64,000 bases of DNA from Catonia carolina (taxonomy: Eukaryota; Arthropoda; Insecta; Hemiptera; Achilidae): assembly GCA_035578175.1 (NCBI GenBank), contig JAQMRL010000001.1, positions 375,477,220 through 375,541,219 of the forward strand, given 5' to 3'. Below are positions 3,266 to 54,721 of this stretch, piece after piece. The number at the start of each line of letters is the position of its first letter. The first letter of the stretch is position 1. Position numbers and translations under genes: made by a program. Under the pieces are notes generated by a model. The model worked only from the letters and a program-made list of their open reading frames with translations. It made no database searches and had not been told where the DNA came from.

Positions 3266-3267
3266 CT

Positions 3268-4653: not shown

Positions 4654-4686
4654 TGCCAGTTTACATAAAGGAATATCATAATTTTG

Positions 4687-6585: not shown

Positions 6586-7282
6586 TTCATCCAACACCTT
6601 TGATTTAAAACCAAATGAGACTTATTTTCAATAATACGAAAATTGCGTAACACAGAATGTGTAGTTTATTTATAGTGGCACTATCAATAAAATTAAAAAA
6701 TATTTAATGATCATCTTTTTAACAATCTGTACTAAAATGAACGAAGATAAAACGTAAATTAAAAACGATTTATGGATACAATAAAACCGCTAATTTATAA
6801 CTCTACAATAAAAAATGAGAGTGGCTAACGCGACCTTGGTAGTTGATACCAGCGAGCACAATCGAGTCCTCCAAACCGTGAACTTGGAAAGGATTGAAAT
6901 GATCAAAAGCGCACACATACACACACGCATACAATACTATACTAGTCCAAGCTTCTGTCAACGTTCTTACGACACGACACCCACTCCTTGTTACGATATC
7001 TAGGCCTAGTTGATAATGTAGGACATATTTTGTAATGGCTGTCAGCTATTATAATATAATATATCTCCCACCCCATTAAGTACACACCCACATGTGATAA
7101 AACTTAATTTTAGTGCGAAAAGGCTATGATACGAACCAATACCGCCAAACCAGATACTACTGTAACAACAAACACTTAAGCACGCTAACCATAATATAAT
7201 AAAATTTTACTCAAAATTGGCAGCCTCAGAGAGCTGCTTTAAACTGTTTATTTTTTTAGTGATATGCCTAAATACACCATCT
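6586..7282. other. Intron with a short GC-richer open frame
   Basis: A 62-codon plus-strand frame at 6815-7003 is GC-richer than its surroundings, but no family is recognised. No splice signals or homology support it as a gene. Confidence 0.35.
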
Positions 7283-7678
7283 GCCCTTAACAGGCAGGTG
7301 GAGTCATTTGCACTCGATCTGCTAGTTCCAGGGCTACAAAAAAATAGTTCTGTTTCTTATCACGTGGTCAGCCATTTATATGACAGAACTATTTAAGAGC
7401 AGAATAGGTAGAGGTATAAAAGACACTAGTTACACTAGAGTTACTCTGAAAGTAATGAATTTTATTATACAGCCAGCCCTTGTGGTGAATGAAGTGAAGG
7501 TGACGTTTGCAGAGGTGCAAAGTAGATGCTTTTCGGAGGACCTGGCATGCTGATAAGCATAGGCTACTTTTGTACTCAGTAAGGAAGGAAATGGTAAAAA
7601 ACCACATTACTCCTCGTTTTGCTTAGTAAAACCTCTAGAGGTTCAAACCAGCCTTTCGGCTGTTGACCTAAACAACAA
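7283..7678 (+). mobile_element. Fam-A SINE copy
   Basis: Nearly full length, from TGCCCTTAACAGGCAGG to TTGACCTAAACAACAA. The internal frame is broken by small indels near 7505. Confidence 0.85.
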
Positions 7679-7734
7679 TGCCTAATAAAATTTGGCTTGT
7701 GGGGAGGTAGTAACGATATACGATAATACACAGA

Positions 7735-8390: not shown

Positions 8391-8690
8391 GTCCCCTACT
8401 GAGTGGAAAGGTACGCTTATCACTATGCCAGGCCCTCCGAAAATCACCTACTTTCCACCCTGCAAATGACACCTTTCACTTCATTCACCACAGGGTCTGG
8501 CTGTATAATGAAATTCATTATTCTTAGAGTAGATAACTCTGAATAATGTATTTTAAACCTCTCCTCTTCTGTTCTTAAATGCTTTAGTCATATAATTGGT
8601 TGATCATGTGATAAAAAAAAAATATTTTGTAGCCCTGGAACTAGCAGATCGAGTGCAAATAACTAAAAACTCTGCCTGCCTGTTTCGGGC
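8391..8690 (-). mobile_element. Fam-A SINE copy, 3' truncated
   Basis: Lacks the hairpin end; the recognisable part starts at CTACTGAGTGGAAAGG and ends GCCTGCCTGTTTCGGGC. It directly abuts a LINE fossil at 8691. Confidence 0.8.
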
Positions 8691-10055: not shown

Positions 10056-10216
10056 AGGCCGGGTTGATGTAGTAGTTAGCGTAATTAACATCAATGCCAG
10101 GGGTCCTGGGTTCGATTCGCGGTCATGTTTGTTATGTCATTCTTGTCTGCATTAGCCTATGGGCATGACATTCCGAGGTAAGAAAAACATTTTCATCAGT
10201 AAAGATAGTTTTTTCT
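10056..10216 (+). mobile_element. tRNA-headed SINE, type 2 tail
   Basis: Head GGCCGGGTTGATGTAGTAGT and B-box GGGTTCGATTCGCGG, followed by a tail with GTCTGCATTAGCC, CATGACATTCCGAGG and CATCAGTAAAGATAG. The last part recurs at 10870-10931, on the far side of the adjacent Fam-A copy. Confidence 0.65.
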
Positions 10217-10575
10217 TGTTGATATTTAGGTCATCAGCCGAATTACTGGTTTAAACCTTTAAAGGCTAAATACGTAAAACGAGGGAGTGAGTGAGTTTAC
10301 TTTACCTTCTTCACAGAATGGAAAAGTATGCTTATCAGCATGCCAGGCCATCTGAAAAGCATTTATTTTCCACCCTGCAAATGACACCTTCACTTCATTC
10401 ACCACAGGGTTTGGAGTGTGTAATGAAATTTATTACTTTCAGAGGAGATAACTCTGACCAGTGTCTCCACCTCTACCCCTTCTGATATACCTCTTCTGTT
10501 CTTAAATGCTTCAGTCATGTAATTGGCTGACCATGAGATAAGAAACAAAACTATTTTTTGTAGCTCTGGAACTAG
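10217..10575 (-). mobile_element. Fam-A SINE copy, interrupted
   Basis: Starts TGTTGATATTTAGGTCATC and runs to GTAGCTCTGGAACTAG. There it is interrupted by a Rep-P element; its remaining end is at 10821-10847 (GACTCCACCTGCCTGTTATG). Confidence 0.8.
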
Positions 10576-10931: not shown

Positions 10932-11101
10932 ATCGAATGTTACAAATCTGACAAAACTCTTGACTTCCCACAATAATAAAATAGTTTTTAAACACGGCAG
11001 GTGGTTGTATCACCTTCATATTTACCTCTTTTTGCTGGTTGCTTTGCGCGAAAGTGAAGAGGTGAGTAAACGCAAATAATAGGCTAACAACACTTTCTTG
11101 T

Positions 11102-11466
11102 TATTGTTTAGGTCATCAGCCTAAAGGCTGGTTTGAACCTGTAGAGGTTTTACTAAGCAAATCGAGGCGTGAGGTGGTTTACCATATGCCATACCGTCTG
11201 AAAAGCACTTATTTTCCACTCTGCAAAATGCCACCTTCATTTCATTCACCACAGGGCCTGGCTGTATAATGAAATTCATTACTTTCAGAGGAGATAACTC
11301 TGATTAGTGTCTTTTGCACCTCTGCCTCTTCTATTCAATCTTTTCTGTTACATGATTCAGTCATTTAATCGGTTAACCATGTGATAAGAAACTGAACTAT
11401 TAATTTTAGCCCTGCAACTAACAGATTGAGTAAATAATTTGACACTCCATCTGTCTGTAATGGGCA
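11102..11466 (-). mobile_element. Fam-A SINE copy
   Basis: From TATTGTTTAGGTCATCAGCC to CTGTCTGTAATGGGCA. It has a deletion of about 30 bp around the segment that reads CACTGAGTGGAAAAG in other copies. Confidence 0.85.
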
Positions 11467-11534: not shown

Positions 11535-11822
11535 TTTCGGTTCTTAGGGGCGTGGATGAAAAAGAAGTATATGGAAGCATCTTACCAGAAGAAGGGATAC
11601 GCTAGTGTGACATATCTTAAGACATCCAGGTACTGGTCTATCAATAATGGAGGGTAATATAGAGGGAGTGAATTGTACGGAGAGGCAAATTTTATAGTTT
11701 ATAAAGCAAATCACAAATAAGATGTAGGGTGTAACAGGCATGTATATATGAAACGACTTGCGTAAGATAGAACAGCTTGGAGAACTGCATCAAACCAGTC
11801 GAGAGACTGATGACAAAAAAAA
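11535..11822 (+). mobile_element. LINE-A 3' end, 5' truncated
   Basis: Contains the 3' end of a non-LTR retrotransposon, ending GCATCAAACCAGTCGAGAGA then CTGATGAC and poly(A). The last coding portion and 3' UTR match the minus-strand copies at 26046-26694 and 31374-31815. Flanking AATAGTTTC (left) and AATTGTTTC (right) may be a target-site duplication with one mismatch. Confidence 0.75.
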
Positions 11823-12714
11823 AATTGTTTCATACTTTTAAGCAAACGAACGCTCAACTTAAGTACAATTCTGGGTAGTTTTTGGCCAAAAAAGAGATGA
11901 TGAAAGCTACCGCGACGTTTATAAACGCAGTGATCTAAAAGAAAATTCAAAAATATAGATATTTGTACCATCTTTGCTATTGAGCGAGGTTAGCTGATTG
12001 AAAGAAGTTTCTCGTTACAGTATTCATCCATAATAATAACCACTAATCCATTTTTACAAAATAACGAATCGAAACGAAGAAAAAACTTGATCTTTAGAAA
12101 ACTTTTCGTACGCTTTATTTGTTATCCGAGACGGAAACAATCGGTTTTGAAATTTGCAGTAATGTTCCATTCGATAAACATCGTACTTAATTTTATGACT
12201 AAGTATTGTTTTTCAAACTTTACATGTCAATGAAGTCCTTGCAATAATTTCATGCTGTTTCTTTTTTTTAACTGGAACGAATCGTTTGAAAACAATACGA
12301 TTTAAAGTCCTCTATGAGAGAGCTGTGAATTAAATAAATAAGAGCATTTAAAAGAATAACCTACAGAAAAATATCATTTAACTTGAAATCTTATATTTAA
12401 AAAGATTTATATCAAATTTTTCAAACAAGATTCGGTCTACCAGAAAAAACGAAAACCTCGAACAGAAATTTTTAACAGACTCATGGTTTAGGACGGAATT
12501 TGTCCTTCATTAATTACTTCCAATTGATTACATGCGTTCATTGTCATTACATATAAATAATCTTCGGTAACTCGGATACAGTTACATTACAAAGTAAACT
12601 TAATGCCCTAAGTACTTTTAACCAAAGCTTACAACATCAAAACACTTACAAGACAAATAGCTTCTAAAGATTATAATGTTATATAATAATGCATACTTGC
12701 GACTTAATCTTTAT
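11823..12714. other. AT-rich intron
   Basis: Unique-looking AT-rich sequence; nothing supported on either strand. Confidence 0.4.
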
Positions 12715-12790
12715 TTATTTATTTAAGTTCGCATCGACTACAAGGTCATTAGCGACCACGTTACTTATCAATACATGTAGTAACAAAATT
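12715..12790 (-). repeat. tRNA-SINE type 1 tail fragment
   Basis: TTTATTTAAGTTCGCATCGA and GGTCATTAGCGACCACG match the 3' tail of the type 1 tRNA-headed SINEs at 20228, 31061 and 56258. The head is missing. Confidence 0.5.
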
Positions 12791-13014
12791 TTCAAAGAAT
12801 ACACAAAATATTTATAAGACACAAACAAACACAATAAGGTCATCAATAAAAACAGAATGAAAAATTAGTTGGGTTCAATGAAAATTTGGACAACATAAAA
12901 ATTAAAAATAAAATGACACAATGAAAAAGAACATTTATATGATTTTCAATTATATTAAATCTGAAATTTTGTGAAAGTTCAAAAAACATTTTGTGTTTTA
13001 TAACCAAATACATA

Positions 13015-13318
13015 ACCAAAACAAACAACACTGGAACCAAATCTGGTCTCAACATCCCCCAACAAAACTTCGCAACAGCAGAAAACATATTTTTGAAAAC
13101 TTAAAGCCTCACTTGGAACTTCGAAGGCATCAAGTACTACTTACACGATTACGCATTGGACACTCTACACTTACTGAAGAATGATGAAGAACAACGTTGT
13201 ACACATTACAACACGCCACTTTCAATCAAACACATATCACCATAGACTGCCAAACTACACATTCCACACTAACACTATTTAAAATTAACAATATTTTAGC
13301 ACATAATTTGGTAGACAA
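13015..13318 (+). pseudogene. Jockey-type LINE ORF2 C-terminal fossil
   Basis: The frame reads PPTKLRNSRKHIF, then ELRRHQVLLTRLRIGHSTLT, followed by stops. In shifted frames it gives CTHYNTPLSIKHI and LTLFKINNILAHNLVDK. The R.....LTRLRIGHt.LT motif followed by a CxxC...IKHI motif is characteristic of the C-terminal end of Jockey/I-type ORF2 proteins in insects. Two in-frame stops and a frameshift show it is dead. Confidence 0.7.
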
Positions 13319-14442
13319 ATAATCTTTAGTTCAAAATATTAACTTTTGTCTCTAATACATTAGAACGGTGATTCCAAACGCTAGATTCCAAACAAGACAT
13401 ATCTGTATTATGACGGTTTTCACTTAAGTATTCTCTAAAGATTACAGCATTAGTGAAAATGTAGACAAAGTAGCAGTCTGTATAGGTACTGTTTGTAACA
13501 ACCGACAAGTATATTTTACAATTATTATGAAATTACGCAGTTATCGATAATTTTACAAGAAAAAAAAACAACAATGAAAGATAATATAAATGATACAACC
13601 CTACTCATACTTTAAAAATTAAATTAAGTTTAGTTAAAAATAAATAGGTTACAGTAACATAAATAACGTTGAATTATATTTAAAATTTCAAAGGGAAGTA
13701 AAATTAGAACTGGATATTGGAAAACTGGGTTTGTTTATATGTGAGTGTTTAAAGGGGCGCTTCTCTTAGATATAATCAATGCGAAAGAGTTTATACGATA
13801 GTTCCTCTTTAAAGTGATAAGGATGGGGAAGTGGTAGGAAGTATTGATTTGGGAGCGACTTCTGGGGTTGGAGTCGGGAAGTGGAGGAAGCCGAAGAGCA
13901 GCAAGCGGTTTGAGTTCACAGCCAGCCAGCCAAAAAGGTGGGGGGGTTGGGATTACTGTATATATTATACAACGCTGCTGTAACCCCGACACACTACCAC
14001 AAAGACATCGTGTGTTGTGCGCGATGAGCATTTACCAGCAAAACAACGCTCCAACCAAGGCTTATAGGTCGTCGCCACACGTTTACATCAATACTGTTTA
14101 AAATTATTTATACCCACGTATTTTTATTTATAAATACACTTTTTTTATTATAAAAATACATTTGTAAATAAAATACATTTAATTGTATCACTTGAACTTT
14201 AAACAGACCGCCAACACTACTATATTATTTTTCAACAATTCTAGAAATAGAAACAGATTTTTCTTGAAAAGAAATCATTACAGTACCAACATAGCAAATC
14301 AGGCTAAAAAAAAAAATACCACAAACGTACGAATATTTTTATTTAAAAACGCTATATGTAAAAGTTGCCCATAAAAGACTATATGTAGTTGCCTTATATA
14401 GTTGCTTTATATATAAGACTATATGTAAGTTGCCCATAAAAG
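13319..14442. other. Intron with GC-rich island at 13840-14095
   Basis: The island (ending in a G run at 13938-13947) is open in both directions for 85-98 codons, but neither product is recognisable. 14345-14442 holds a short local duplication: CTATATGTAAAAGTTGCCCA and CTATATGTAAGTTGCCCA about 70 bp apart, just before a Fam-A copy. Confidence 0.4.
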
Positions 14443-14835
14443 CTGCCCATAACAGACAGGTGGAGTGTCAAATTATTTACACTCAATCTGTTTGTTGCAG
14501 GGCTAAAATAAATAGTTCTGTTTCTTATCACATGGTCAGCCAATTTAATGACTGAATCATCTAAGAACAGAAGAGGTAGAGGTGTAAAAGACACTAGTCA
14601 GAGTTATCTTCTCTGAAAGTAATGAATTTCACTATACAGCCAGACCCTGTGGTGAATGAAGTGAAGGTGTCATTTGCAGAGTGGAAAATATGTGCTTTTC
14701 AGAGAGCCCGGCATGCTGTTAAGCGTACTTTTCCACTCAGTGAGGAAGGCAATGGTAAACCACCTCACTCCTCGTTTTATTTAGTAAAACCTCTACAGGT
14801 TCAAACCAGCCTTTCGGCTGTTGACCTAAACAACA
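14443..14835 (+). mobile_element. Fam-A SINE copy
   Basis: Full length, TGCCCATAACAGACAGGTGG to GTTGACCTAAACAACA. The internal frame (plus strand, from 14622) is open for 92 codons and contains NEVKVSFAEWKICAFQRAR, shared with at least six other copies. Confidence 0.9.
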
Positions 14836-16004
14836 CATATGTAAAAGATATAAAAGATTTTTTTTTCATAATTGAAAAACTAAATATCACCCGTGAATGA
14901 ATAATGAAAAGTTCTAAATTAAACTTCCAGGAAAATGTAATATTTTTAAGTCCCACTTGGCATTTCTTCGTAATATTTCTAAAAATAACTTCACCCCATT
15001 ACAAAACCTTTATAATGAAATCCTGCGTTTAAGATGCAAGGAAAGAAAGAACAGCAGATACAATGGAGAAACCATATTTGTTCATCAAACTCAAAATAAT
15101 TGAATTACAATTACTAATTAATTTTAAATAATAATAATAATTTTACTAGAAGATGTCGAATTTTTGTTTAATTAGTACATATATTTTCGTATATCATTAT
15201 TTTATATTTAAATATTGTATCTCAAGTCCTTATCCACATTATATTTAAAAACAAGTACTCTTATTTGTTTTTCGTTTATCTATTCAAGGCTAAAATTACA
15301 AGTTAATATTGTTTTTTTTTAGCTTGACTCTAGACTTTTCTTTCTTAGAGCTTGATGGTGCCAACACGATTTTCAATGAGGTTACCTAACCAAATTTTTT
15401 TCCCAGTTAGTGTTATAATAATGTTTGGTTAATTATTGTGTTATAAAATTAGTTTAATTAGAAAATATATTGTGTGTGGATAAGTAATTAAGTTATTTTA
15501 TTGTTTCAAAAACCAAAGTAAAATTTGTAACTTGGAAATTATGTGTGTGAATAAAAATAATTAAAATAATAATTTTAAAATTGTATTTTATTAATAACAA
15601 GTACAGAGAGGCGTATTTACATGTAGGAAACTAATTTCAACGTTACTGTTTTACTGAAAATCAAGTGGCAAAGTAACCAAGAAATATTGTCAGTTCCTAT
15701 TTAACAGATTAATTTTGAACCAAATATTTTTTATTAAAGTACGGTATCATACTTCATTCAATTATGTGCAAAGCACAGATCAATAATAAACATTATCAAT
15801 TTTTAATAAAATTGCTAATTATAATTAAATAGAAAAAAACGCAGCAATTATGCACAATTTTTTCAGCTCGACTAAAGAAAAATTACGTTAAAAGTACGTG
15901 AAACTGACTAAAAACAAAAAAAAAAAAACAAAAAAAAAATGAAATCCAAAAAATCTTATCTCAACAAATACGAAGCAACTCTCAAAGCTCTATTAAATTC
16001 GATA
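14836..16004. other. AT-rich intron
   Basis: No recognisable feature apart from an A-rich run at 15915-15952 and the left target-site copy AAATTCGATA (15995-16004) of the next element. Confidence 0.4.
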
Positions 16005-16398
16005 TGTGTTGTTTAGGTCATCAGCCAAAAGGCTGGTTTGAACCTGTAGAGGTTTTACTAAGTAAATCGAGGAGTGAGGTGGTTTACCATGCCTTCCTCA
16101 CTGAGTGGAAAAGTACATTTATCAGCATGCCGGGCCCTCTGAAAAGCATATATTTTCCACTCTGCAAATGACACTTTCACTTCATTCACCACAGGGTCTG
16201 GCTGTATAATCAAATCCATTACTTTCAGACGAGATAACTCTGATTAGTGTCTTTTACACCTCTACCTCTTTTGCTCTTAAATGATTCAGTCATTTAATTG
16301 GCTGACCATGTGATAAGAAACATAACTATTTATTTTAGCCCTGTAACTAACAGATTGAGTGTAAATAATTTGACAATCCACCTGTCTGTTATGGGTAA
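16005..16398 (-). mobile_element. Fam-A SINE with 10-bp target duplication
   Basis: A 394-bp insertion from TGTGTTGTTTAGGTC to GTTATGGGTAA, flanked by perfect AAATTCGATA copies at 15995-16004 and 16399-16408. It defines the element ends: no terminal inverted repeats and a duplication length typical of LINE-type integration. Confidence 0.92.
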
Positions 16399-16730
16399 AA
16401 ATTCGATAAGTCATCTTATAAAAATATTTAAGCTATCATAGCATTATTCATTTTAATGACATAATACTTTCGTTTCAGCTTAAAAATAAATTGTACAGAA
16501 GTAATAATTGAATGATAGACATGGACTGCGAGTAGTCAAGGTCAACATAATTACATTATTCTTTTACGATTTTTTGCAAAGACGGATGGCTTCCTACCTA
16601 GCAAACGCCCTCTACAGAACTATCACTACAACCTTACTATGTAACAGACAGGTCAACAGAAAACACCTGAAACAAATGACTAATTCGACAGTAGTGTAAT
16701 TACTACTTTCCACTGCAAACGTTATAATCG

Positions 16731-17076
16731 TATTCTGAATTATTCTGTTCGAAATATTTCAAGGAAGCTACATACAAGATTATAATAGTATTCTGAATTA
16801 TTCTGTTTGAAATATTTCAAGGAAGCTACATACAAGATTATAATAGTATTCTGAATTATTCTGTTCGAAATATTTCAAGGAAGCTACATACACGATTATA
16901 ATAGTATTCTGAATTATTCTGTTCGAAATATTTCAAGGAAGCTACATACAAGATTATAATAGTATTCTGAATTATTCTGTTCGAAATATTTCAAGGAAGC
17001 TACATACAAGATTATAATAGTATTCTGAATTATTCTGTTCGAAATATTTCAAGGAAGCTACATACAAGATTATAAA
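16731..17076. repeat. 58-bp tandem repeat, six copies
   Basis: Units begin TATTCTGAATTATTCTGTTC at 16731, 16789, 16847, 16905, 16963 and 17021, with only a few substitutions (TTTG for TTCG in copy 2, CACG for CAAG in copy 3). The last unit runs into a perfect palindrome, ATACAAGAT-TATAA-ATCTTGTAT, around 17062-17084. Confidence 0.95.
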
Positions 17077-17184
17077 TCTTGTATAGTTACTATTCAATTA
17101 AAAAGGGGCGTAGTAATGCATATAGGAAAATGATTTACTGTGACACTTAAAATGTCAGCACTGAATTTTAACATTATTTAAAAA

Positions 17185-17876
17185 TCTGGTGTGAAACACA
17201 CGACTTTCTATTGCCATTACAAATAATGAACAATATAACCTAACATTAGAAATAAACAAAAAAACACAACAATTTTAATCATGAGTGAATGATGTAAAAT
17301 TAAAACCAACCTTAGTTTTGCTTAATAATAGGAAAAGTCACTCTTTTACGCTAAAATAGGCTTAAAATTAGGTTATGGCTTTTTTGAGGTAAGATTTTTT
17401 TGTTTATTTTTAATGTTTTATTACTAATGATAGGTCATATTTTTATGTGTTGTTTAGTCATCAGCCGAAAGGCTGGTTTAAACCTGTAGAGGTTTTACTA
17501 AGTAAAACGAGGAGTGAGATGGTTTACCATTGCCTTCCTCCCTGAGTGGAAAAGTATGCTTATCAGCACGCCGAGCCCTCTGAAAAGCACATATTTTCCA
17601 CTCTGCAAAAGACACCTTCACTTCATTCACCACAGGGTTTGGCTGTAAAATGAAATTCATTACTTTCAGAGGAGATAACTCTGTTCTTAAATGATTCAGT
17701 CATTTAATTGGCTGACCGAGATAAGAAACTGACTATTTTTAGCCCTGCAACGAACAAACTGAGTGTAAGCAATTTTACACTCCACCTTTCTGTTATGGGC
17801 AAATTTCATTCATATTTTTTATTATTTGCATTGGTAAGAGAAAGTCGTAAGAGTTTTTCACACCAGATTTTTCTTT
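17185..17876. mobile_element. Palindromic HINE remnant (copy B) interrupted by Fam-A
   Basis: 17185-17362 is the 3' end of a HINE in minus orientation (TCTGGTGTGAAACAC onward). From about 17364 the same end sequence runs in plus orientation to 17876 (CACCAGATTTTT), giving an inverted pair. The plus arm is split at 17447 by a Fam-A insertion. Confidence 0.75.
17447..17809 (-). mobile_element. Fam-A SINE inside a HINE arm
   Basis: Inserted with the duplication TCATATTTTTAT (17435-17446), against TCATATTTTTTAT on the right (17810-17822, one extra T). The interrupted HINE sequence reads across cleanly when the insertion is removed. It has lost a block near the 5' half (GATTAGTGTC region). Confidence 0.88.
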
Positions 17877-19150
17877 AAATTATACTTTTATTGTAAAAAT
17901 ATGCGAAAAGTGCTACCGTATCAACAATTACAAACTTTACTAAACATAACGCGGTAAACCGCACACTATTATAGTAGCACAAGGTAAAGTATGGAGTAAA
18001 ACCTGGAAAATCAATAAAACAGATTATTTAATACACACCTCTGTGGCTATTCAATAGTTAGTGGGCCTACAAAATAAATAATAAATAACATTTTCCATTT
18101 CTATACCTACGGTAACCTAATAACCCATTTAATATTATCAAAAAAAAACTGAAAATAGAATCACCGATAAAAAAAGTTAAAAGTCATCAAGTAATTTTTT
18201 TAATATTCCTCTAAAAGAAGTACATAGTTCTTTATAAACGGAAATAATCTGAGATAATATCATTAATATCGAATACAAGTAACAAAAAAAAGATAGGTGA
18301 ACAGAAGAAGAAGTACAGGGGGTAAGGTAGGATAAGGGGGACCGCAATAAGATGTGCAACGTTGCCAATTCTCCGACGTCGTCGCCGCGGTGAATGCCCT
18401 CTGTACACAACTACATTAACTAAAAGTTACATCGTGCATCATTCCCTGTCACTCAGTCTCACAATAACCATTTATGTGTACAAATAAACATAGTATACGA
18501 TACACAAATAAAACAAGAATACTATTATAGATCAATGCCTGAAACAACCAATCGGTTAGTAAATGCGTAGAATAACAATGATTATGGTGTTCTTGAATAA
18601 TTTTCAATTAAAAAAATAAACATACAATTAGTATGAAATAATAATAATATATAAAAACCAGTTAATAAGAAAATAGCATAACAGGTGCCAACTACGGTAC
18701 ACCGTCAACAGGTTTACTGAACAGTGATACATTACAGAACAATTAATTCATAAATAAAACTGCTCTTTATTTATCTATGAACACCTTACAGCATAATAAA
18801 TAGAACACTAAAAAGAACACCTGATATTCGAAAGCATCAGAAATTTAAACACTCTTAACAATTAGCTTTGTCAATCAAAAACAATCTCGAATAATTTGTT
18901 CACATAACACTGTTTAATAAAATACGATAATTCAAGGTTTTATTAAAAACTAACAAGACCTAACAACCCTAACCCTCCGTTTCGCATTCATAAATACACT
19001 TTACTTCCACGTACATAACCATCTATTAAAATATTTCTGAGCTTAAATTTTTATTATACTTTACTATAATATAAATTAATTAGCATGCCCCGTCGCGGCT
19101 TCAAACGCGAAACATGTTTTCTTTTTTGTAAATAAGTAACAGAAATTGTG
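17877..19150. other. AT-rich intron with GC-richer patch at 18290-18410
   Basis: The patch (GGGGGTAAGGTAGG and GACGTCGTCGCCGCGG) is not recognised. Nothing else is supported. Confidence 0.4.
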
Positions 19151-19154
19151 TAGC

Positions 19155-19405
19155 TGTTAGATCGACAGCATACTCCAACAGCACGCATACACACACACGA
19201 CAATCTTTTTCATAATTTCCCCTGTGTACGTCTTCAAAATCTTCATTAGGGTGCTTAGGGTTATCATTTTTTGAATATTAAAAAATATTGTTGCTGTGAA
19301 TATAAATATGAATGTGCTGAAAAATTTCATGCAAATCCGTTCAGTAGTTTTGGAAATTAGCCTGCACAAAAAACACGCTTTGTTTTTATAAAATTAGTAT
19401 AGATT
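19155..19405 (+). repeat. Probable 3' end of a dispersed insect repeat
   Basis: Contains TTTCATGCAAATCCGTTCAG TAGTTTTGGA and ends TTATAAAATTAGTATAGATT. This arrangement is common at the termini of dispersed insect elements, but only one copy is in this window, so the family cannot be named. Confidence 0.45.
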
Positions 19406-19661
19406 ACTATGTTCCAGGAGGTAATAAAAACTGTCCCTGCAAACTTCTTGAATACTATGTAACCACCGCAAAATGCAATCGGCCGAATGAATGGAATATT
19501 GGATAAGACACAGAAACAAATTGTAGAATTTCAAATTTCTTTTAATTCTTGATACATGAATTTTTGAGATGTTCATTTACTTTTATTTATTCATAAATAT
19601 TACTCCCTCCCAAAAAGACTTTTAGCACGTGTTTATGTTCAAGAAGGAAGGGACTTTAAAC

Positions 19662-19850
19662 TAGATTTTAAAAAAAACTGATTTTTCCCGTAACCATTAA
19701 AGTATACCTGCAACTGCTGTAATATTGAAATCCGTATAAAAGTAACATATTTACTAGGATCTGAACCACGGAACCTTCGTCTCCGAAAATCAGCAGTTAA
19801 ACAGCTGACTTGCGGCGACGACTTTGCCATTAAGACCAACCCGGTGAGTA
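19662..19850 (-). mobile_element. SINE-C head fragment
   Basis: Minus-strand copy of the SINE-C head (GGTTGGTCTTAATGGCAAAG, GTCGTCGCCG, B-box GGTTCAGATCC). It lies head to head with the plus copy starting at 19880, forming an inverted pair. Confidence 0.7.
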
Positions 19851-19879
19851 CAAAAAAAAAACATAAATCACAATAATTA

Positions 19880-20163
19880 GTCGTCGCCGTGAGTCAGCTG
19901 TTTAACAGGTGATTTTCGGAGACGAAGGTTCCTGGTTCAAATCCAAGTAAATGTAGTTACACGGATTTGAATACTAGACAGTGGTTACCGGTGTACTTTG
20001 ATGGTCGGGGTTTAATTAACCATACGCTCTCAGGAATGGTCGGCCTGGGTCTGTACAAGATTAAACCTCATTTACACACCATATCATCCTCATCTCATTG
20101 GGTCATGGGATTGCTTATTGTTCTAAATTGAACAGATTGCAACGCACACACATTAGCAATTAA
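19880..20163 (+). mobile_element. SINE-C copy
   Basis: Lacks the first about 25 bp of the head. It has GTCAGCTGTTTAACAGGTG, B-box GGTTCAAATCC, CTAGACAGTGGTTACCGG and the 3' end AACAGATTGCAACGCACACA. Confidence 0.8.
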
Positions 20164-20227
20164 AAAAATACAATTGTACGAGTATTTATATTAAAGAAGT
20201 TGACTTAAGACTACAATAATGTTTCTT

Positions 20228-20393
20228 GGCCGCCTCCGTAGCGTAGTGGTTAGCACTTTAGCCTACCACGCGGAGGTTCGATTCCCGGCCAGGGTCTGAA
20301 ATTTTTCAAATCAAATCCCACAGTTACTGTCATAAAATAATCCACCACAGTCGCTAATAACCAAGCAGTTGATGCGACTTTAAACAAATAAAT
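20228..20393 (+). mobile_element. tRNA-headed SINE, type 1 tail
   Basis: Head CCTCCGTAGCGTAGTGGTTA with B-box GAGGTTCGATTCCCGG. The 3' part has a perfect hairpin arm pair AGTCGC ... GCGACT around TAATAACCAAGCAGTTGAT, then an A-rich end. Confidence 0.85.
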
Positions 20394-20464
20394 TTTTTAA
20401 AAATATTTCTTATCAAGAATACACAAAAACTTTGGTGTAAACAACCGGTCAAATTTACACTAAC

Positions 20465-20640
20465 AACCGGGAGTAAAGTACTGTGCAATACGAGCGTTGT
20501 ACGGAACCCGATGTGATTACAATATAATCGCTCGACCCCGTACAGCGCTGTTTCGTTTAGCGACCGATGGCTGCGGAACGCATCTCAAGCGCTAAACGGG
20601 GTACTACTGTACTTGGATAATCGAACACCCAAAAGCCACT
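20465..20640 (-). repeat. GC-richer repeat with pogo-like terminal motif
   Basis: On the minus strand it reads GGTGTTCGATTATCCAAGTA, CAGTAGTACCCCGTTTAGCG, and later CGCTAAACGAAACAGCGCTG. The style resembles ends of pogo/Tigger-like elements, but no second end or protein is seen. Confidence 0.3.
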
Positions 20641-21110
20641 AGTAATTAAAACATTTTTATTAACTTTATTATACTGTAATAACTAATAATATTATTTCTT
20701 ATAAAAAGTCTGACTAAAAAAAGTATTTAAATAAATAAAAAACAAAATTATTAAAAAAATATAAAATCTTCACTGCATATTAAGCCAATAGATAACTTTT
20801 ATCTACATATTAACGAGGGCAATATTCTTTACACATTTTAAAAATATATTTGATAAATAAACTGAAAAAAGATATGAGCATACTGAAATGGTAAATACAT
20901 CAGCAGTCAAAATATTATAGTACAACAGTCACGGTTTTGAGAAAATGTAAGTTAAGATAGCGGTGTTTCCGCTTCTATTATTACCAACATAACAGTAAAT
21001 TATCGGTTAAACGTAATTATTATGTACAGTTGTACAAGTACAATAATGTAATGGCTTTTGTCAGTTACATCAAAAATGTACATAGTGCACACAAATGGAA
21101 TACCTAAAAC
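20641..21110. other. AT-rich intron
   Basis: Nothing supported. Confidence 0.4.
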
Positions 21111-22492
21111 TCTGGTGTGAAACACTCACTCGACTTTCTCCTTCCAATGCAAATAATGACCAATACAACCCAAAATTAGTAATAGAACATTAGAAATAAA
21201 GAAAAACCTAACCTCAAAAAACATAACCTTATTTTAATCATGACTGAATGATGCAAAATGAAAACCAACCTTACTTTGGCTTAATAATTCGGAAAATCAC
21301 TCTTTCGCGCTAAACTAGGCGCTGTAGAGAAAAATGCTTCAAATAAAAGTTACAGTAAAACCTTTTAATTCCCATAAATTTGATTATATACACTTTTGTC
21401 GTAAAATAAATACCTAATAACTAAGGCCGAAATCTTAAAAATCCATTTTTTAAACTTTCATGAAAAAAAAACATAAAATCACTCATTACCGCTAAACTAA
21501 GCGTTATGCAAAGAAATGTTTGAAATAAGTGTAAAAATGTTTGAAAACACTTTTAAATTGTCAACAACTATTAGTATGTACACTTTTACCCTTAAACGCA
21601 TATTAAGGCCGCAATCTTAACAAAACCATTTTTTTCTACGAGACAACAGCCTCCCCAAAGAATTTCAGCAGACATGGCGTCTACCCTATCTCGTAGAGCA
21701 TAAAAAAATTTAGTAAATGAAGCAATAATTATAAAAAAAATCATTGGAACCTTTTTTGAGAAAATCGCAAAAAAGTGAAAAATTACACGAATAAATTACT
21801 AATTCCGGTCGACCGATTTTAATGAAAATTTTCGTGTCGGGTCCTCTAGTAGGTCCTAACGTAAGTTTCAAGTTTCAACTTCGTACGATGTTCCGTTCTC
21901 GAGATATTCTGTTCAAACGCGCGCGCGCACACACACAGAGGGGGACAGAGAGACAATCGCTAAAATAAAGTTTTTTTTGGGGTTCAGGGGGTCTGAAAAC
22001 GTGTAATCCAGTGAAAACTCGATTTCGAAAAATCGACATGAAAACAATACTTTCCTTCCTATATGTTCATATTGTTGTTTAGGTCATCAGCCAAAAGGCT
22101 GGTATGAACCTGTAGAGGTTTTACTAAGTAAAATGAAGAGTGAGGTGGTTTACCATTGCCTTCCTCACTGAATGGAAAAGTAAGCTTATCAGCATGCCGG
22201 GCCCTCTGAAAAGCACATATTTTCCACTCTGCGAATGACACCTTCACTTCATTCACCACAGGGTGTCTGGCTGTATAATGAAATTCATTACTTTCAGAGG
22301 AGATAACTCTGATTAGTGTCTTTTACACCTCTACCTCTTCTGTTCTTAAATGATTCAGTCATTTAATTGGCTGACCATGTAATAAGAAACAGAACTATTT
22401 ATTTTAGCCCTGCAATGAACAGATTGAGTGTAAATAATTTGACACTCCACCTGTCAGTTATGGGCATAATGTTCATATAGGCAAAAGAAAAT
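21111..22492 (-). mobile_element. HINE copy C, split by a Fam-A insertion
   Basis: Runs from TCTGGTGTGAAACACTCACT to TTCCTTCCTATATGTTCATAT, is interrupted at 22073-22468, and resumes as AGGCAAAAGAAAAT. The internal simple repeat is (CG)n/(CA)n at 21919-21940. Both halves of the 175-bp internal duplication are present. Confidence 0.85.
22073..22468 (-). mobile_element. Fam-A SINE inside HINE copy C
   Basis: A 396-bp insertion flanked by ATGTTCATAT at 22063-22072 and 22469-22478. It lies in the terminal hairpin of the HINE, whose uninterrupted form is seen in other copies as CCTATATATTCATATAGG. The internal frame is open on the minus strand. Confidence 0.93.
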
Positions 22493-23361
22493 AACAATAA
22501 AACGAATGGATATATATACATAGTTGCATATAGGTTATAAATTCTCGTCGATGAACTCAATAACTGTGAATGTCAACCGAGTTAGAAATATCGATTTACG
22601 TGTCAATGCCCACTGAAACATACAAAATTATACTTCACCGGTCGTGGTTAGGCCTACTACCAATTTATACCCCATATTCAATAACCATCGATACAATTAC
22701 TTTGTTAAAGGTTAAATAAAACCCATTATTTTAGTACGCGTTTAATATGTTCTGACAACAATTTCACGTTCCGGATTTATGAATTTTGTTTAAAACAAAC
22801 ACGGTTTTTTAGTTTCTTAATAATTGTATACTAACAACTAGCAACCTCCAGCTTGCTGCAGTTCACGGAAAACTAAACTTAAACCGTTTAACTCTTCAAA
22901 CAACTTTACACGTTGAAAGTAAAAATCACGCTGTATAAACAGAATCAATTATTACTGGAAAATTGATTTTTTGACATCAGTATTTATTACCCGAAGAAAG
23001 GAGACAAACAGAACTTAAAATGCATATTTAAGTAAAAGTAGATAATCTTTTTTTTAAATCATTGTAGACCTAAGATCTCTTTGATTTTTTTCAAGGATTA
23101 AATAACATTCCATGCAGAAATTTGATGTGAGATTATTTTTAGGACATCTAATCATCCGTTAAATAATTTTCAAAAATTCCGGATAAAGGAAAGAGAATAG
23201 AATGATGTCATTTTGTAGAGTTATACTAAAACGTACCTGATACCTGACAATATTACACCTGATATTATACCTACATAATACATTGTACAATAGATTGTAC
23301 AATACTGATTGATTAACGAACTAAATTTCTCAAACTATCATGCAGCAACTTTTTTTTAGCT
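22493..23361. other. AT-rich intron
   Basis: Nothing supported on either strand. Confidence 0.4.
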
Positions 23362-23590
23362 TTTATTTGTTAACGGGAACTGTACATTATTGAATACTAC
23401 CCAATTTGATAGCTGTATTTTTGAAGTGAATTAGGTATGAGTTTGAACAGGGACTCCCAGTAGAGTTTGTTCATGGATGGGTGTCAGCTGGTTACCATCA
23501 AAGTCGCTTGCCCAACCGATGTTACTTAACAAATATTAGCGATTTTCTACCAGCTGACTGACTGGGCTGACCTGGAGGCTATTCAGCAAA
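23362..23590. repeat. Rep-P repeat
   Basis: The inverse of the 10576-10818 copy: AACGGGAACTGTACATTATTG, CAGGGACTCCCAGTAGAGTT, CAAAGTCGCTTGCCCAACCG, CAGCTGACTGACTGGGCTG. Confidence 0.7.
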
Positions 23591-23624
23591 TAAATTAAAA
23601 TTAAGACTCCTTAATTTTAATCTT

Positions 23625-23976
23625 AAGGGATTCTCCTTGCTGAGAATCCCTTGGACGGCACATATGACCAATGTTGAGGTGCTGAGAAGGATGAGGAAGG
23701 ATATGGAGGTGATGAATACCATAAAGCGAAGAAAACTCCAATATCTTGGACACATTATGAGGAATGGAGAAAGGTATGAACTTCTGCAATCCATACTGCA
23801 AGGAAAAATATTAGGACAAAGGGGCCCAGGTCGAAGAAGAATATCCTGGTTAAAGAACCTTAGAACCTGGTTCAATAAAACTACTCCGCAACTGTTTAGA
23901 GCTGCAGTTGACAAAGGGAGGATCGCCATGATGGTGTCCAACATTCGAAACGGATTGGCACCTTAAGAAGAAGAAG
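23625..23976 (+). pseudogene. LINE-B reverse-transcriptase C-terminal end
   Basis: The frame 23637-23966 is open to a natural stop and reads MLRIPWTAHMTNVEVLRRM, RRKLQYLGHIMRNGERYELL, GQRGPGRRRISWLKNLRTWF and MMVSNIRNGLAP. This is the segment after the RT domain in insect non-LTR elements often annotated as endonuclease-reverse transcriptase. It ends in (AAG)n and is heavily 5' truncated. The flanks GACTCCTTAATT (23614) and GACTCCTAATT (23977) look like a target duplication with one indel. A short snap-back (AAGGGATTCTC ... GAGAATCCCTT) marks the 5' junction. Confidence 0.85.
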
Positions 23977-24315
23977 ACTCCTAATTCATCAACACTTTTT
24001 TTTTAATTTAAAAACGTCATACCATATTACTCAGGAAGTCCTAAGCTTTCCAACGGTTAAAGTATTTTTAAAATCAGTTAAATAAGTTCTGAGATTACTT
24101 TGCACAAACAAATGTAACTTCTTTACCATATTAGTATAGAAGTAGAGACTGAACGGGATTATTTTTGGTCTCAGAACGGTGCATTAAATATACTTGCACC
24201 TTCCGTTTCACTCCACACTTAACTTTTTCCGATGTATTTTATACAGAATAAAATTCCCTTGAATGAAGAATATTTGCATCCTCAGACATTGAATAAATTG
24301 GTTAATTTATTTTTC

Positions 24316-24653
24316 TGGCCATAACAGGCAGGTGGAATGTTAAATTATTTGCAATCGATCTGCTAGTTACAGGGCTACAAAAAAAAATAGTTGTTTTTTA
24401 TCACATGACCAGCCAATTATATTACTGAAGGATTTAATAAAAGAAGAGGTAGAGGTGTAAAAGACACTAGTCAAGAGTTATCTCCTCTTAGCGTAATGAA
24501 TTTCATCATACAGCCAGATCCTGTGGTGAATGAAGTGAAGGTATCATTTGCAGGATGGAAAGTATAAGCTCTTCAGAGGGCCTGGCATGCTGATAAGCAT
24601 ACTTTTCCACTCAATGAGGAAGACAGGCATTTCGACTGATGCCCTACCAACAA
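24316..24653 (+). mobile_element. Fam-A SINE copy with internal deletion
   Basis: From TGGCCATAACAGGCAGG. About 60 bp is missing before a degenerate end TTCGACTGATGCCCTACCAA, so the hairpin is broken. Confidence 0.82.
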
Positions 24654-24655
24654 CT

Positions 24656-25358
24656 CTCCAAACTTTTCTACGTTACTACATTAAGAACATACTACAGCCG
24701 ATTTTCAGAATTATAGCTCTTTAGGAAGGTACCGAAATAATATTTTTTTAAAGGTAACACCCTTTTTCCCTTAGGAGCAAATGGTCGAAATTATTCTAGA
24801 TTAACTTTGTCGACGTATTTCTAACATAATAAGTACAATAAGTGGTAAAATAATAGTAACCACCCCTTGAAAATGACAAGATACGCAAGTACTTTGCAAA
24901 AAATGTTTGATGATAAACTCATGAACAATTTAATGATAAAATTTATTTTTATGTACTTACAAAATTTTAAACATTAACCAGAAAATAATGCAGGTTATTG
25001 ACGCTGAAATAAATACAATAATTGCAATTATTATCAGCTTAAAAACCGAGATACAAATTAAAGAGTTAAGTTAAACCGACACAAGGAAACTTTGTTTTCC
25101 TTAAAACAAATATTATTATAAGAATTGATAACGTCTACAAACGCTACTATTTTCCTCCAGATAAAATATTTTTACAAAAGCCACGTAAGAAGGGTATTAG
25201 TAATTCTAAGAAAAAGTAGTAAACTAATACAACTAAACTCAAACAATAAGTAAAAATCACTTTCATGAGACGACGCGTCTCACGTCCGGTGGCAATTTTT
25301 AAAAAGGCTTACTTTTGATTTATGGCAAAAACCGTAAGTGATTTCAGTATCTACTTTT
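24656..25358. other. AT-rich intron
   Basis: Nothing supported. A small perfect palindrome, GAGACG-ACG-CGTCTC, lies near 25268. Confidence 0.4.
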
Positions 25359-25930
25359 TTTAAGGGGAGTGTGGATCTCTATCCTAAGCAATGTTAATGT
25401 TTGTACTTTTTTCTCAGCAACCACTACAGCTAGAGCTACAACTTTTGTTTTGTATGAAAGGCCACTCTTTGGTACATAATTGGAATGTGTAGCATTTAAT
25501 TATGGTAAGAAATTTGATTTTCACAATTTTTTTTAAAAACATGCCATTTTTTCATCAAAAACTCACCGTAAAAAGTTTTTCCTACCACAATTTTCAATAT
25601 TTTTAAAAACGGCACATTCAATCAATAGAACTGGACGATTAACATACTCCATAAAAATTTCAGCCTTGTACTTTTTGTGGAAGCTGAGAAAACGGTACAT
25701 AAAGTTCTAAAAATGTCGTTTTGAGATGATATTCGCGTTTAAAGTTTGAGAAACAAAAACACAAGTGTAAACAAAGACAGACCACAAAAAAAAATTAATA
25801 AAGTATTTTCTAGTGGGCATAGCAACATGATTCTAACGCCAATTCAAAGCACACATTTCAAACTATATTTTTAACGATGAAATGAAAAATCGATAATTGT
25901 TTTATTTTTTCATTCCACACTCCCCTTAAA
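25359..25930. mobile_element. MITE with TTAA-flanked inverted repeats
   Basis: About 570 bp bounded by a perfect 17-bp inverted repeat, TTTAAGGGGAGTGTGGA at 25359-25375 and its inverse at 25914-25930. TTAA falls at both junctions, as expected for piggyBac-type targets. No coding remnant is seen, and other superfamilies cannot be excluded. Confidence 0.65.
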
Positions 25931-25966
25931 GAGCAATTGAATGACACTAATTTTGTTTCCAAATTA

Positions 25967-26955
25967 CGACTTTGATTTCTTGACATCCGGTCGAAACCGG
26001 AATTTCAAACCCAATCCAGGCCCACACTAATTTTTCTTGTAGATTTTTTTTGTCATCAGTCTCTCGACTGGTTTGATGCAGTTCTCCAAGTTGTTCTACC
26101 TTGCTTAAGTCGTTTCAAATTTACAAACCTCCAACACTCTACATCTTTTGTAAATTTCCCGTAAATAGAGTAACCTTTGCCTCCCCCAACAATTCACTCC
26201 CTCAATTTTACCCTCCATTTTTGTTAGACCACTACCTGGATGTCTTCACATACGCCCCACTAGCCTATCCCTTCTTCTGGTAAGATGTTTCCATATGCTT
26301 CTTTCATTCACTAGTCTAAGAACTCGAAATTACTTATTTTGTCCACCCACCTATTCTTTAATATTTTTCTATAACGCCACATTTTAAAAGCTTATATCCT
26401 ATTCCTTTCTACATCCCCTATCGACCACGTCTCACCCCTGTATAATGCTACACTCCAAACATAGTGTTTTAAGAAATTTTTCCGAATGTATAAATCAATG
26501 TTTGCAGTCGGTAAGCTGTTTTTCATTTCAAAGGCCCTTCTAGCTTGACCAATCCTACTTTTGATATCATTTGTGTTTCTAGTATCATTTGTTATATGTA
26601 AATTCTGCTATATAAAGCAGAATTCATAAACTTCCTGTACGATTTCGTAGCCTATTTTAAAAATTCCCATCTCTTCAAAACCACTCGTGCATTGTGTAGA
26701 TTACGAATCCGAAAACTGTTAATTTCTATCATCGCTTGTAGTTTCTGACTTTGATTTCTTAACTTCCCGGTTTTGGGACTTTTCCTGTCTAAACCGGAAC
26801 TTCAAACCCAATTTAAGCTCACTATATTTTTGTGTATATTACGAATTCGAAAACAGTTTGTTGTTATCTCTTGTAATTTCTGACATCTGGGTGTGACGGA
26901 CGGACGGACGGACGGAGAAAGGAAAATTACAATTTTAAAAATTACCATCAATAAA
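25967..26955. repeat. Two-unit tandem repeat split by LINE-A
   Basis: Unit 1 (25967-26045 plus 26703-26755) and unit 2 (26750-26890) share CTTTGATTTCTT, AACCGGAA(T/C)TTCAAACCCAA and ATTACGAAT(C/T)CGAAAAC. Unit 2 is uninterrupted and shows the pre-insertion state. The array ends in a (GACG)n microsatellite at 26897-26916. Confidence 0.7.
26046..26694 (-). mobile_element. LINE-A, 5'-truncated insertion with 8-bp duplication
   Basis: Minus-strand 3' end CCAGTCGAGAGACTGATGAC plus poly(A) at 26046. Upstream, decayed coding sequence reads approximately RIGQARRAFEMKNSL, IRKNFLKHYVWSVALY, GETWSIG and AFKMWRYRKILK, the typical post-RT region of an insect LINE. The flanks are TGTAGATT at 26038-26045 and 26695-26702. 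Confidence 0.85.
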
Positions 26956-31241: not shown

Positions 31242-31373
31242 TCCAGACTTTTAATAAATCATGAACAACGAGATTGAGATTCAGAACTGGATGCTTATGA
31301 CAACAAAAAAATTAACGCTACCTAAGCTGATGATCAAGATCCATGACACACTATCTGCTTACACTACCTTTTT

Positions 31374-31815
31374 TTGTCATCAGTCCTCGACTGGTTTGAT
31401 GCAGTTCTCCAAGCTGTTCTATCTTGCTTAAGTCGTTTCATATCAACATACCAGTAACACCCTACATATTTTGTAATTTGCTTAAAATATTCTAACCTTT
31501 GCCTCCTCCTGCAATTCATTCCCTCAATGTTACCCTCCATTAATGATAGACCAATAGGCTACCTGGATGTCTTAAGATATGCCCCACTAGCCTATCCCTT
31601 TTTCTGGTAAGATGCTTCTATACACTTCTTTTAACATTCACTCGCCTAAGAAACTCTAAATTACTTATTTTGTCCACCCACATAATCTTTAACATTTTCC
31701 TACAACTACATTTCAAAAGCTTCTATCCTCTTCCTTTCTACAACCTTTATCACCCATGTTTCACTCCCGTATAATGTTATGCTTTAAGAAATTTTTCCTA
31801 ATCTTTAAGTCAAAG
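31374..31815 (-). mobile_element. LINE-A 3' end, 5' truncated
   Basis: Minus-strand end GCATCAAACCAGTCGAGGAC TGATGAC with poly(A). The body (CCTCTATTGCTACCTGG-like 3' UTR and decayed RT tail) is collinear with 26046-26694. The target duplication was not resolved. Confidence 0.78.
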
Positions 31816-32473
31816 TTTGTAACCATATTGTCTATAAAACACAATATTTACTACATACATAAGACAACTAAAACTGAGTTAACTGTAACAAGAAAGATTA
31901 TACTACTTTATAATATAGATTAGGTATATTTTAAAAATTAATATCAAAAAAACAATAACAGTTATTAATCTTTCAACATAAAGCTAACAAAAAACAAACA
32001 TCAATTCGAATCAGATTTACATCAACTGAAGCAACAACGACCTGAATTCCACACGATAAAAAATTACTGTTAAAACTTTGTGCTGACAAACACCACAACA
32101 TAGTATACATTACATACGCCGAAGAAATTTTTTGCACAAACTTTCCACATTTGCTGAATGAAACAAGATACGCACAAGGGAATGCAACAGCGATTCTAAG
32201 AACAGAAAAACAATCTGAAACTTTCGTACAAAATATTACAAATACTTGAGTTACTTACACACTGAAAGAAGAAATAACAGAAAAAGATAAAATACCACGT
32301 GTAAAAGGCTAAAATCTTGTAAATGAATAGTTTCTAGCAATACTACACTAGTAATTTTATCAAAATTCACAATTTTCCAGATTTAACGAAACAAAAGGTT
32401 ACTGAACAAATACTGTATATGATTACAAAACGTTAAATTTTCTCTACAAGTTAATAATTATACTACTTAGTTG
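31816..32473. other. AT-rich intron
   Basis: Nothing supported up to the mariner insertion. Confidence 0.4.
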
Positions 32474-34272: not shown

Positions 34273-34284
34273 TCATGTTAGTTT

Positions 34285-43384: not shown

Positions 43385-43440
43385 GGTGTTGTACTTTTAT
43401 TATTGAAACATAATAAAAATGTTGAATTTTACTAAAAAAA

Positions 43441-54720: not shown

Positions 54721-54721
54721 T

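What the first reader, a model, noticed from the sequence alone, without database searches (positions are those of the whole stretch)
11535..26694. SINE Fam-A and LINE-A share a 3' hairpin with a compensatory change
LINE-A copies end TCAAACCAGTC-GAGA-GACTGATGAC plus poly(A). Fam-A copies end TCAAACCAGCC-TTTC-GGCTGATGAC followed by CTAAACAACA. Flanking bases and both stem positions are the same, the loop is free to vary, and the third stem pair is T-A in the LINE but C-G in the SINE. The rest of the two elements is unrelated. Stringent LINEs are known to recognise a 3' stem-loop in their own RNA and in partner SINEs. Fam-A also shows 8-12 bp target duplications and a 5'-truncated copy. Inference: Fam-A is mobilised by LINE-A, and the hairpin is the recognition element.
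Basis: partly seen in the sequence, partly recalled or inferred. Interest (0 to 1): 0.78.

Follow-up and report, generated by a model that had tools for sequence, protein, structure and literature searches.

The report
LINE and SINE share stop-codon hairpin
In an insect-like genome a short, probably parasitic repeat ends in the same small RNA hairpin as a gene-bearing jumping element, and in the jumping element that hairpin is made from the last codons of its own gene, so the two are very probably copied by one enzyme.

Summary
LINE-A and Fam-A share 25 terminal nt; the six differences are the four loop bases and one two-sided pair change, T-A to C-G. LINE-A is a 3,355-bp EN+RT element of RTE type with open 1010-aa frames. 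New here: its frame ends inside the hairpin (..SNQSRD, TGA), so little but TGAC and poly(A) follows. Of 105 protein relatives 44 keep N[QRKHW][SP] at the C-terminus; the loop residue varies freely, and two sister proteins carry S-to-P with D-to-G, the swap seen in Fam-A. Both elements make mostly 11-bp target duplications starting T|A with T's 9-12 bases upstream, like the published RTE signature. Mobilisation of Fam-A by LINE-A-type machinery is well supported; recognition of the hairpin is inferred. The one LINE-SINE pair change alone is weak (P = 0.016, or 0.05 with transition bias). A search for a closer partner LINE did not complete. RTE LINE/SINE pairs and 3' stem-loops are known; a hairpin over the stop codon was not found in my paper searches. 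Fam-A's head is unidentified, so 'SINE' is provisional.

The parts
11539..11822 (+). LINE-A copy, 5'-truncated (element positions 3081-3355) with poly(A)
   Evidence: 89.5% to a full-length copy
26045..26690 (-). LINE-A copy, 5'-truncated (element positions 2720-3355) with poly(A)
   Evidence: 84.8%
31369..31821 (-). LINE-A copy, 5'-truncated (element positions 2898-3355) with poly(A)
   Evidence: 86.8%; loop one base shorter
11790..11814 (+). LINE-A 3' hairpin UCA-AAC-[CAGUC-GAGA-GACUG]-A-UGA-C; codons S-N-Q-S-R-D-stop-stop
26052..26076 (-). LINE-A 3' hairpin
31376..31399 (-). LINE-A 3' hairpin, loop shortened by one base
57737..58140 (-). Fam-A, near full length; hairpin 57758-57782
15995..16399 (-). 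Fam-A, near full length; hairpin 16017-16041; duplication TATCGAATTT
14446..14840 (+). Fam-A, near full length
22069..22464 (-). Fam-A, near full length; duplication ATATGAACAT (below the score cut)
42985..43400 (-). Fam-A, near full length
1134..1530 (+). Fam-A, near full length; C.A at stem pair 4
17444..17803 (-). Fam-A with an internal gap
7282..7679 (+). Fam-A, near full length
11098..11466 (-). Fam-A next to the first LINE-A copy
4684..5078 (-). Fam-A, near full length, 3' flank of the hairpin decayed
59104..59482 (+). Fam-A, hairpin 5' arm decayed
10216..10574 (-). Fam-A, stem broken
46733..47068 (+). Fam-A, 5' end lost
41425..41692 (+). Fam-A, 5' part lost, stem broken
46574..46681 (-). 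Fam-A, 5'-truncated to about 100 bp
24316..24625 (+). Fam-A lacking its 3' end
47112..47398 (-). Fam-A lacking its 3' end
8398..8690 (-). Fam-A lacking its 3' end
51804..52120 (-). Fam-A, decayed 3' end
23571..23985 (+). LINE-B (second RTE-type family) 3' part, end GGCACCTTAAGAAGAAGAAG; comparison element with a different end
34284..34996 (-). LINE-B-like copy, second example

Best explanation
Fam-A is a short non-autonomous retroposon copied by the endonuclease-reverse transcriptase of LINE-A, an RTE-type LINE. Shown: they share a 25-nt end that can form the same two-part hairpin, no other similarity was seen, and their target sites have the same signature. Shown: in LINE-A this hairpin is the end of the reading frame, with the 5' arm in codons Q-S, the loop in the Ser wobble base plus a free codon, and the 3' arm in codon D plus the stop. 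Inferred: the LINE-A protein recognises this hairpin (stem plus AAC/A internal loop, not the loop sequence) on its own RNA and on Fam-A RNA, nicks target DNA at T|A, and primes on the A-rich tail, (A)n for LINE-A and CTAAA(CAA)n for Fam-A. Because the signal overlaps the coding end, selection on RNA pairing shapes the last residues of the protein.
For: Shared end at genome scale: 39,633 exact motifs, 0 for the reversed pattern. Hairpin and ORF end ..WRTASNQSRD in 6 of 6 copies fetched at full length, GACTGATGAC in 9 of 10 further long copies. Copies cut to 36 and 79 nt still hold it (L056, L057). Confident target duplications in 23 of 41 LINE-A and 19 of 64 Fam-A copies; 11 bp in 14 and 10 of them. 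T|A start in 18 of 23 and 16 of 19, null means about 7.7 each; T at -12 to -9 in excess, P 0.0006-0.0008 for LINE-A and 0 of 5,000 trials for Fam-A. This resembles the 'Tn-TA' signature of Bov-B and Sauria SINE (PMC13295347, sections read). Fam-A T.G 1,046 versus C.A 621, binomial P = 1.6e-25 if copies are taken as independent; both changes have the context G[C]C. Relatives: of 31 that read through the loop codon 28 allow all five inner pairs, shuffled mean 24.7, P = 0.0035. NQP-x-G in P0058/P0061 and NKS-x-D-L in P0056 fit two-sided changes. Ages overlap: 39 Fam-A copies lie 2.6-18.4% from their majority; 13 LINE-A matches in loci not picked by the protein search lie 0-15% from a young copy.
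Against: No binding, transcription or mobilisation data. The LINE-SINE compensatory change is one event; random placement of six changes keeps all pairs with P = 0.016, or 0.05 with transition bias. LINE-A's hairpin folds only slightly better than shuffles, z -1.5. Tails differ: LINE-A (A)n, Fam-A CTAAA(CAA)n; only 89 LINE-context ends have C after CTGANGAC. The two NQP proteins are sisters, so one event; 3 of 31 relatives (H, K with stop, N) cannot form all pairs, and one of 10 long LINE-A copies has a broken pair (L093). The T.G excess could partly reflect founder copies. The -12 to -9 band was tested after the table had been seen; T|A is partly ambiguous because the tails end in A (the null allows for that); outside T|A the two T profiles correlate only at 0.26.
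Confidence: 0.8

Rival explanations
1. Fam-A is mobilised by another, closely related RTE LINE of this hairpin lineage whose stem is C-G (protein end NQPxG) and whose tail is CTAAA(CAA)n; LINE-A is only a cousin that shares the signal.
For: Fam-A reads SNQPFG-stop in the LINE frame, like the NQPNGC ends of P0058 and P0061. One relative (P0010) reads out of frame as KPVFGLKTTTTT, which fits an ACN-repeat tail as in Fam-A. LINE-A's own tail is poly(A).
Against: tblastn with ten RTE-type C-termini, P0058 and P0061 among them, found only LINE-A-like and LINE-B-like matches in 264 kb. The 53 hairpin-like rows of L030-L057 (some places fetched twice; 36 distinct sequences) class as 32 Fam-A and 4 LINE-A, 0 other. 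LINE-A is young and abundant.
Confidence: 0.14
2. The hairpin is coincidental to recognition: the LINE keeps it because the protein C-terminus NQSxD matters, and the SINE merely picked up a LINE end by template switching.
For: In LINE-A the whole hairpin is coding. N-Q-S and D are conserved in most motif-bearing relatives.
Against: 13 of 44 motif-bearing relatives end before D (for those from short contigs a contig end is not excluded, but P0060, P0062, P0065, P0072 and P0074 come from NCBI or UniRef records), so D seems dispensable to the protein, yet D follows in 28 of the 31 that read on. Fam-A codes no such protein, keeps the structure, and shows the T.G excess.
Confidence: 0.05

Closest known systems
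Bov-B LINE with Sauria SINE / Bov-tA (RTE clade)
   Same: RTE-type EN+RT LINE sharing its 3' end with a SINE; Tn-TA target signature; LINE and SINE of one pair end in different simple repeats (PMC13295347, abstract and sections 11 and 16 read). A ruminant repeat pieced from strings in two papers (PMC4337102, PMC6912451, one passage each) folds into a like two-part hairpin.
   Different: That the ruminant piece is the Bov-B/Bov-tA tail, and that it also overlaps the Bov-B reading frame, is recalled; neither paper's passage names it and it was not tested. In PMC13295347 the terms stem-loop, secondary structure, hairpin and stop codon do not occur.
HaRTE1.1 LINE with HaSE1/HaSE3 SINEs of Helicoverpa armigera
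   Same: Insect RTE LINE and SINEs sharing a 3' tail (PMC3272025, passages seen).
   Different: HaRTE1.1 has a short 3' UTR ending in TGA repeats and HaSE1 a tRNA head; no hairpin over the stop codon is in the passages seen. Fam-A has no recognised head.
ZfL2-1 / ZfL2-2 and UnaL2 (stringent LINEs of fish)
   Same: A 3' stem-loop of the RNA is needed and bound by the LINE protein (PMC4176376, passages seen).
   Different: There the loop is specifically recognised; here LINE and SINE differ at all four loop bases and the loop codon varies among relatives.
Maize/sorghum L1-lineage LINEs with ZmSINE2/3; tobacco TS SINE with an RTE LINE
   Same: Shared 3' ends of SINE and LINE; the maize and sorghum ends form a hairpin with compensatory changes (PMC3747384, section 16 read, other passages).
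   Different: In the maize case loop and 3' flank are conserved and the stem varies; here the loop varies. TS shares about 100 bases. No coding overlap is described in what I saw.

Membership tests
Stringent LINE/SINE pair | Shared 3'-terminal sequence, unrelated elsewhere | tested here: met
   19 of 25 terminal bases identical, no clear similarity elsewhere
Stringent LINE/SINE pair | Conserved 3' stem-loop with covariation | tested here: met
   One two-sided change LINE to SINE; NQP/G and NKS/L changes in relatives, inferred from amino acids; weak per event, stronger together
Stringent LINE/SINE pair | SINE moves only with the LINE protein and the hairpin | not testable with these tools
   Needs a retrotransposition assay
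Stringent LINE/SINE pair | Same insertion signature | tested here: met
   11-bp mode, T|A start, T-rich -12 to -9 in both; 23 of 41 LINE-A and 19 of 64 Fam-A copies gave usable duplications
RTE clade LINE | APE-type endonuclease plus RT in one ORF, no ORF1, about 3.3 kb, very short 3' end | tested here: met
   PF03372 and PF00078 in a 1010-aa frame; 3,355 bp with about 320 bp upstream of it
RTE clade LINE | RT phylogeny with named RTE reference elements | not tested
   No reference set held; some relatives are named Craniofacial development protein 2, which by recall is a Bov-B-derived name
SINE | Short, target duplications, dispersed, very high copy | tested here: met
   About 390 bp; duplications; tens of thousands of 3' ends
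SINE | Pol III head (tRNA, 5S, 7SL) with A and B boxes | tested here: inconclusive
   ARAGORN 0 and Rfam 0 on the window, Rfam 0 on one copy at E up to 1; only a B-box-like GGTTCAAACCA beside the hairpin and A-box matches with two mismatches

The most novel reading that the evidence does not exclude
RTE-type LINEs as a group carry their 3' recognition hairpin inside the last codons of the reading frame (outer helix, A-rich 5' internal loop, 5-bp inner helix, free 3-4 nt loop), and SINEs across animals, from Fam-A here to ruminant Bov-tA, have captured it. The protein end would be an RNA signal in disguise, with residues co-varying as base pairs, and recognition would read the internal loop and helices rather than the hairpin loop. 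LINE-B in this window has a similar end (GCC-AAC-[ATCCG-GAA-CGGAT]-A-GG), with 7 of 8 idealised pairs changed on both sides.
Probability: 0.4. Interest if true: 0.78.

Novelty: new variant of a known kind. Interest (0 to 1): 0.62.

Why it matters
RTE LINEs move between species often (PMC13295347, text seen), and what their 3' ends do is still discussed there. A recognition signal folded from the stop-codon region would explain how an RTE 3' UTR can be almost absent and why a SINE needs to capture only about 25 bases. It also predicts which protein C-terminal residues are really RNA constraints. It makes the mechanism directly testable: synonymous and compensatory changes can separate RNA from protein effects.

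Tried and rejected
Chance: the looser motif in the prokaryote contig collection gave 29 matches without these elements, and in viral contigs none.

Known RNA heads for Fam-A: none by Rfam or ARAGORN. A Fam-A reading frame as a protein found no relatives.

LINE-B as Fam-A's partner: its 3' end is GGCACCTTAAGAAGAAG or similar, not Fam-A's. LINE-B's similar hairpin is a lead only: none of its 5 sampled ends appears among the strict 8-pair hits, and one (L045) does not fold that way. In that scan of 528,000 positions, 36 of 40 strict hits were sorted as Fam-A/LINE-A by motif and 4 as other, one of which (L049) is a Fam-A variant.

Rows dropped before the duplication counts: five LINE-A loci (L044, L049, L064, L072, L080: cut or broken matches), two long copies whose fetched ends lacked the expected start or end string (L086/L087, L092/L093), 15 of 80 Fam-A matches without a 3' end and one more without a recognisable end. 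Then 10 LINE-A and 28 Fam-A copies scored too weakly, 7 and 16 gave nothing, and one of each was low-complexity. A name clash in the script was found on checking; the corrected run gave the same counts.

Printed sequence in papers: two searches with pieces of these ends found 0 papers. Topic searches listed no paper whose title or shown abstract start describes a hairpin over an RTE stop codon; most listed papers were not opened, and the library holds only open-licence papers.

Not answered: LINE-specific T.G and C.A counts, an NQP-type LINE search, and a LINE-B covariation pattern.
Full report
What is there. The window lies in a 1.47-Gb assembly in 142 contigs. It holds three 5'-truncated LINE-A copies and 19 copies or larger pieces of the roughly 390-bp Fam-A family. 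They differ at 6 of 25 bases: four in the loop and two forming one pair, T-A in LINE-A and C-G in Fam-A. Outside these 25 bases no similarity stands out. RNA folding shows that the conserved flanks can pair too: UCA with UGA, leaving AAC on the 5' side and A on the 3' side unpaired. Fam-A extends this with AGG/CCU. The folding energy is better than shuffles for Fam-A (z -3.4) and only slightly so for LINE-A (z -1.5).

How common. The motif occurs 39,633 times in the genome: 6,812 with T-A, 1,419 with T.G, 896 with C.A, and the remaining 30,506 mainly C-G by the listing of the first 100. With Fam-A flanks, T.G stands at 1,046 and C.A at 621 (binomial P = 1.6e-25 if copies are independent). Decay after insertion should give about equal numbers, since the mutated C sits in G[C]C on either strand; the excess of the pairing form points to selection or success before insertion. 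Founder effects may contribute. T.G is also the natural step between T-A and C-G.

The LINE. A search with the C-terminal peptide scored 150 of 53,658 first-look candidates; a number of them lie in frames of 1010 aa. Six copies fetched at full length are 3,355 bp from GGGCTATAAAGG to GATGAC and 98.8-99.7% identical in pairs, with (A)n tails; four of the six show a duplication of 11 bp or more by script, one only a weak match and one none. Of ten further long copies whose ends were fetched, nine have GACTGATGAC and one GACTAATGAC. The frame holds an endonuclease (residues 65-275) and RT (578-828), and the nearest solved structures by sequence are L1 ORF2p. The frame ends ..SNQSRD, then TGA TGA: the hairpin is CAG-TC|G-AGA|GAC-TG(A), so the coding sequence runs through it and ends on its 3' arm. 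One copy, L056, consists of only 36 nt of LINE-A and still has hairpin and poly(A).

Relatives. Two protein searches gave 105 relatives. Of these 44 carry N[QRKHW][SP] at the C-terminus; the other 61 are fragments, other lineages, or lack it. In a tree of 57 long relatives (drawn with a midpoint root), the rows with the motif fall in one group of 36 rows (support 100/100; 6 of the 36 lack the motif), which includes Diaphorina, Cacopsylla and Macrosiphum. Schistocerca P0003 has the motif too but was too short for the tree. Of the 44, 31 read through the loop codon and 13 end at it; contig ends are not excluded for all 13. The loop residue takes 13 different amino acids in 31 rows, while the next residue is D in 28, G in 2 and N in 1. 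G occurs only with P in place of S, in the sister proteins P0058 and P0061. S to P with D to G is T to C and A to G at the two bases of one stem pair, the same swap as in Fam-A. P0056 has K with L after D, which allows A-T in place of C-G at the outermost inner pair. From amino acids alone 28 of 31 rows allow five pairs against 24.7 in shuffles (P = 0.0035, not corrected for relatedness); rows with H, with K and stop, and with N cannot form one pair.

Shared insertion machinery. Of 41 LINE-A and 64 Fam-A copies scored, 23 and 19 gave confident duplications (rows dropped beforehand are told under tried and rejected). In both families 11 bp is the mode (14 of 23; 10 of 19). The duplication starts T|A in 18 of 23 and 16 of 19, against about 7.7 expected from a null that lets the A-tail extend the match. 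T is in excess at -12 to -9 in both, a band tested after seeing the table but close to the published position. Outside the T|A step the two T profiles correlate only weakly (r = 0.26). PMC13295347 (abstract, sections 11 and 16 read) describes this Tn-TA signature for Bov-B and Sauria SINE, and names insects among the groups still to be looked at.

Mechanism. I take Fam-A to be copied in trans by LINE-A protein, which recognises the two-part hairpin and primes on the tail. Shown: shared hairpin sequence, shared target signature, pairing-biased variants, overlapping ages. Inferred: binding, trans-mobilisation, and that the loop is not read. The different tails, (A)n and CTAAA(CAA)n, do not exclude it: Bov-B and Sauria SINE also differ in their end repeats (PMC13295347). 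The main open rival is an unsampled sister LINE with a C-G stem; the search for it did not complete.

Placement. RTE LINE/SINE pairs, including an insect one (PMC3272025, passages), and 3' stem-loops of LINE/SINE pairs in several clades, RTE in mammals among them (PMC5135761, passages), are known; compensatory changes are described for a maize and sorghum L1 lineage (PMC3747384, section read). What I did not find in the searches made is a recognition hairpin laid over the ORF end and stop codon with residues co-varying as base pairs. A second RTE family in the window (LINE-B) has a similar but not strictly matching end, and a ruminant repeat seen in two papers folds alike; its attribution to Bov-B is recalled. 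These make a clade-wide signal plausible, not shown.

Noticed in passing
window 23571-23985 (+), 34284-34996 (-), 54504-54957 (+); L038:8435-8960; L045:5543-6060: A second RTE-type family (LINE-B, end ..GLAP-stop in the first copy, tail AAGAAGAAG) whose coding 3' end can fold GCC-AAC-[ATCCG-NNN-CGGAT]-A-GG in the better copies, like LINE-A's layout but in other bases.
   Followed up: partly
window 32591-33745 (-): A 384-aa open frame of mariner-like transposase (named from recall of the family, no family search run).
   Followed up: no
L031 and L054 around 6970: Head-to-tail Fam-A pairs: a Fam-A 3' tail followed at once by a Fam-A 5' start.
   Followed up: no
window 6571, 17858 (+); 17194, 21120, 29351, 43450, 45415 (-): Another repeat family with ends ..TTTCACACCAGATTTTT or close variants, perhaps a DNA transposon.
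   Followed up: no
window 16722-17075: 58-bp tandem repeat, 6.1 copies, 98% alike.
   Followed up: no
P0065, P0072, P0073, P0074, P0060, P0062, P0057, P0054, P0049, P0051, P0044: In many relatives the protein ends at the loop codon itself (NQS or NRS as last residues), scattered over the tree.
   Followed up: partly
window 7643, 14801 (+); 46608, 43023 (-): A Fam-A subset has T instead of the unpaired A on the 3' side of the internal loop (CTGTTGAC).
   Followed up: no
genome G000:C1:250130014-250130042 (+) and C69:22299631-22299659 (-): Two ends with LINE-like GCA before a Fam-A-type stem, perhaps mutated Fam-A copies or chimeras.
   Followed up: no
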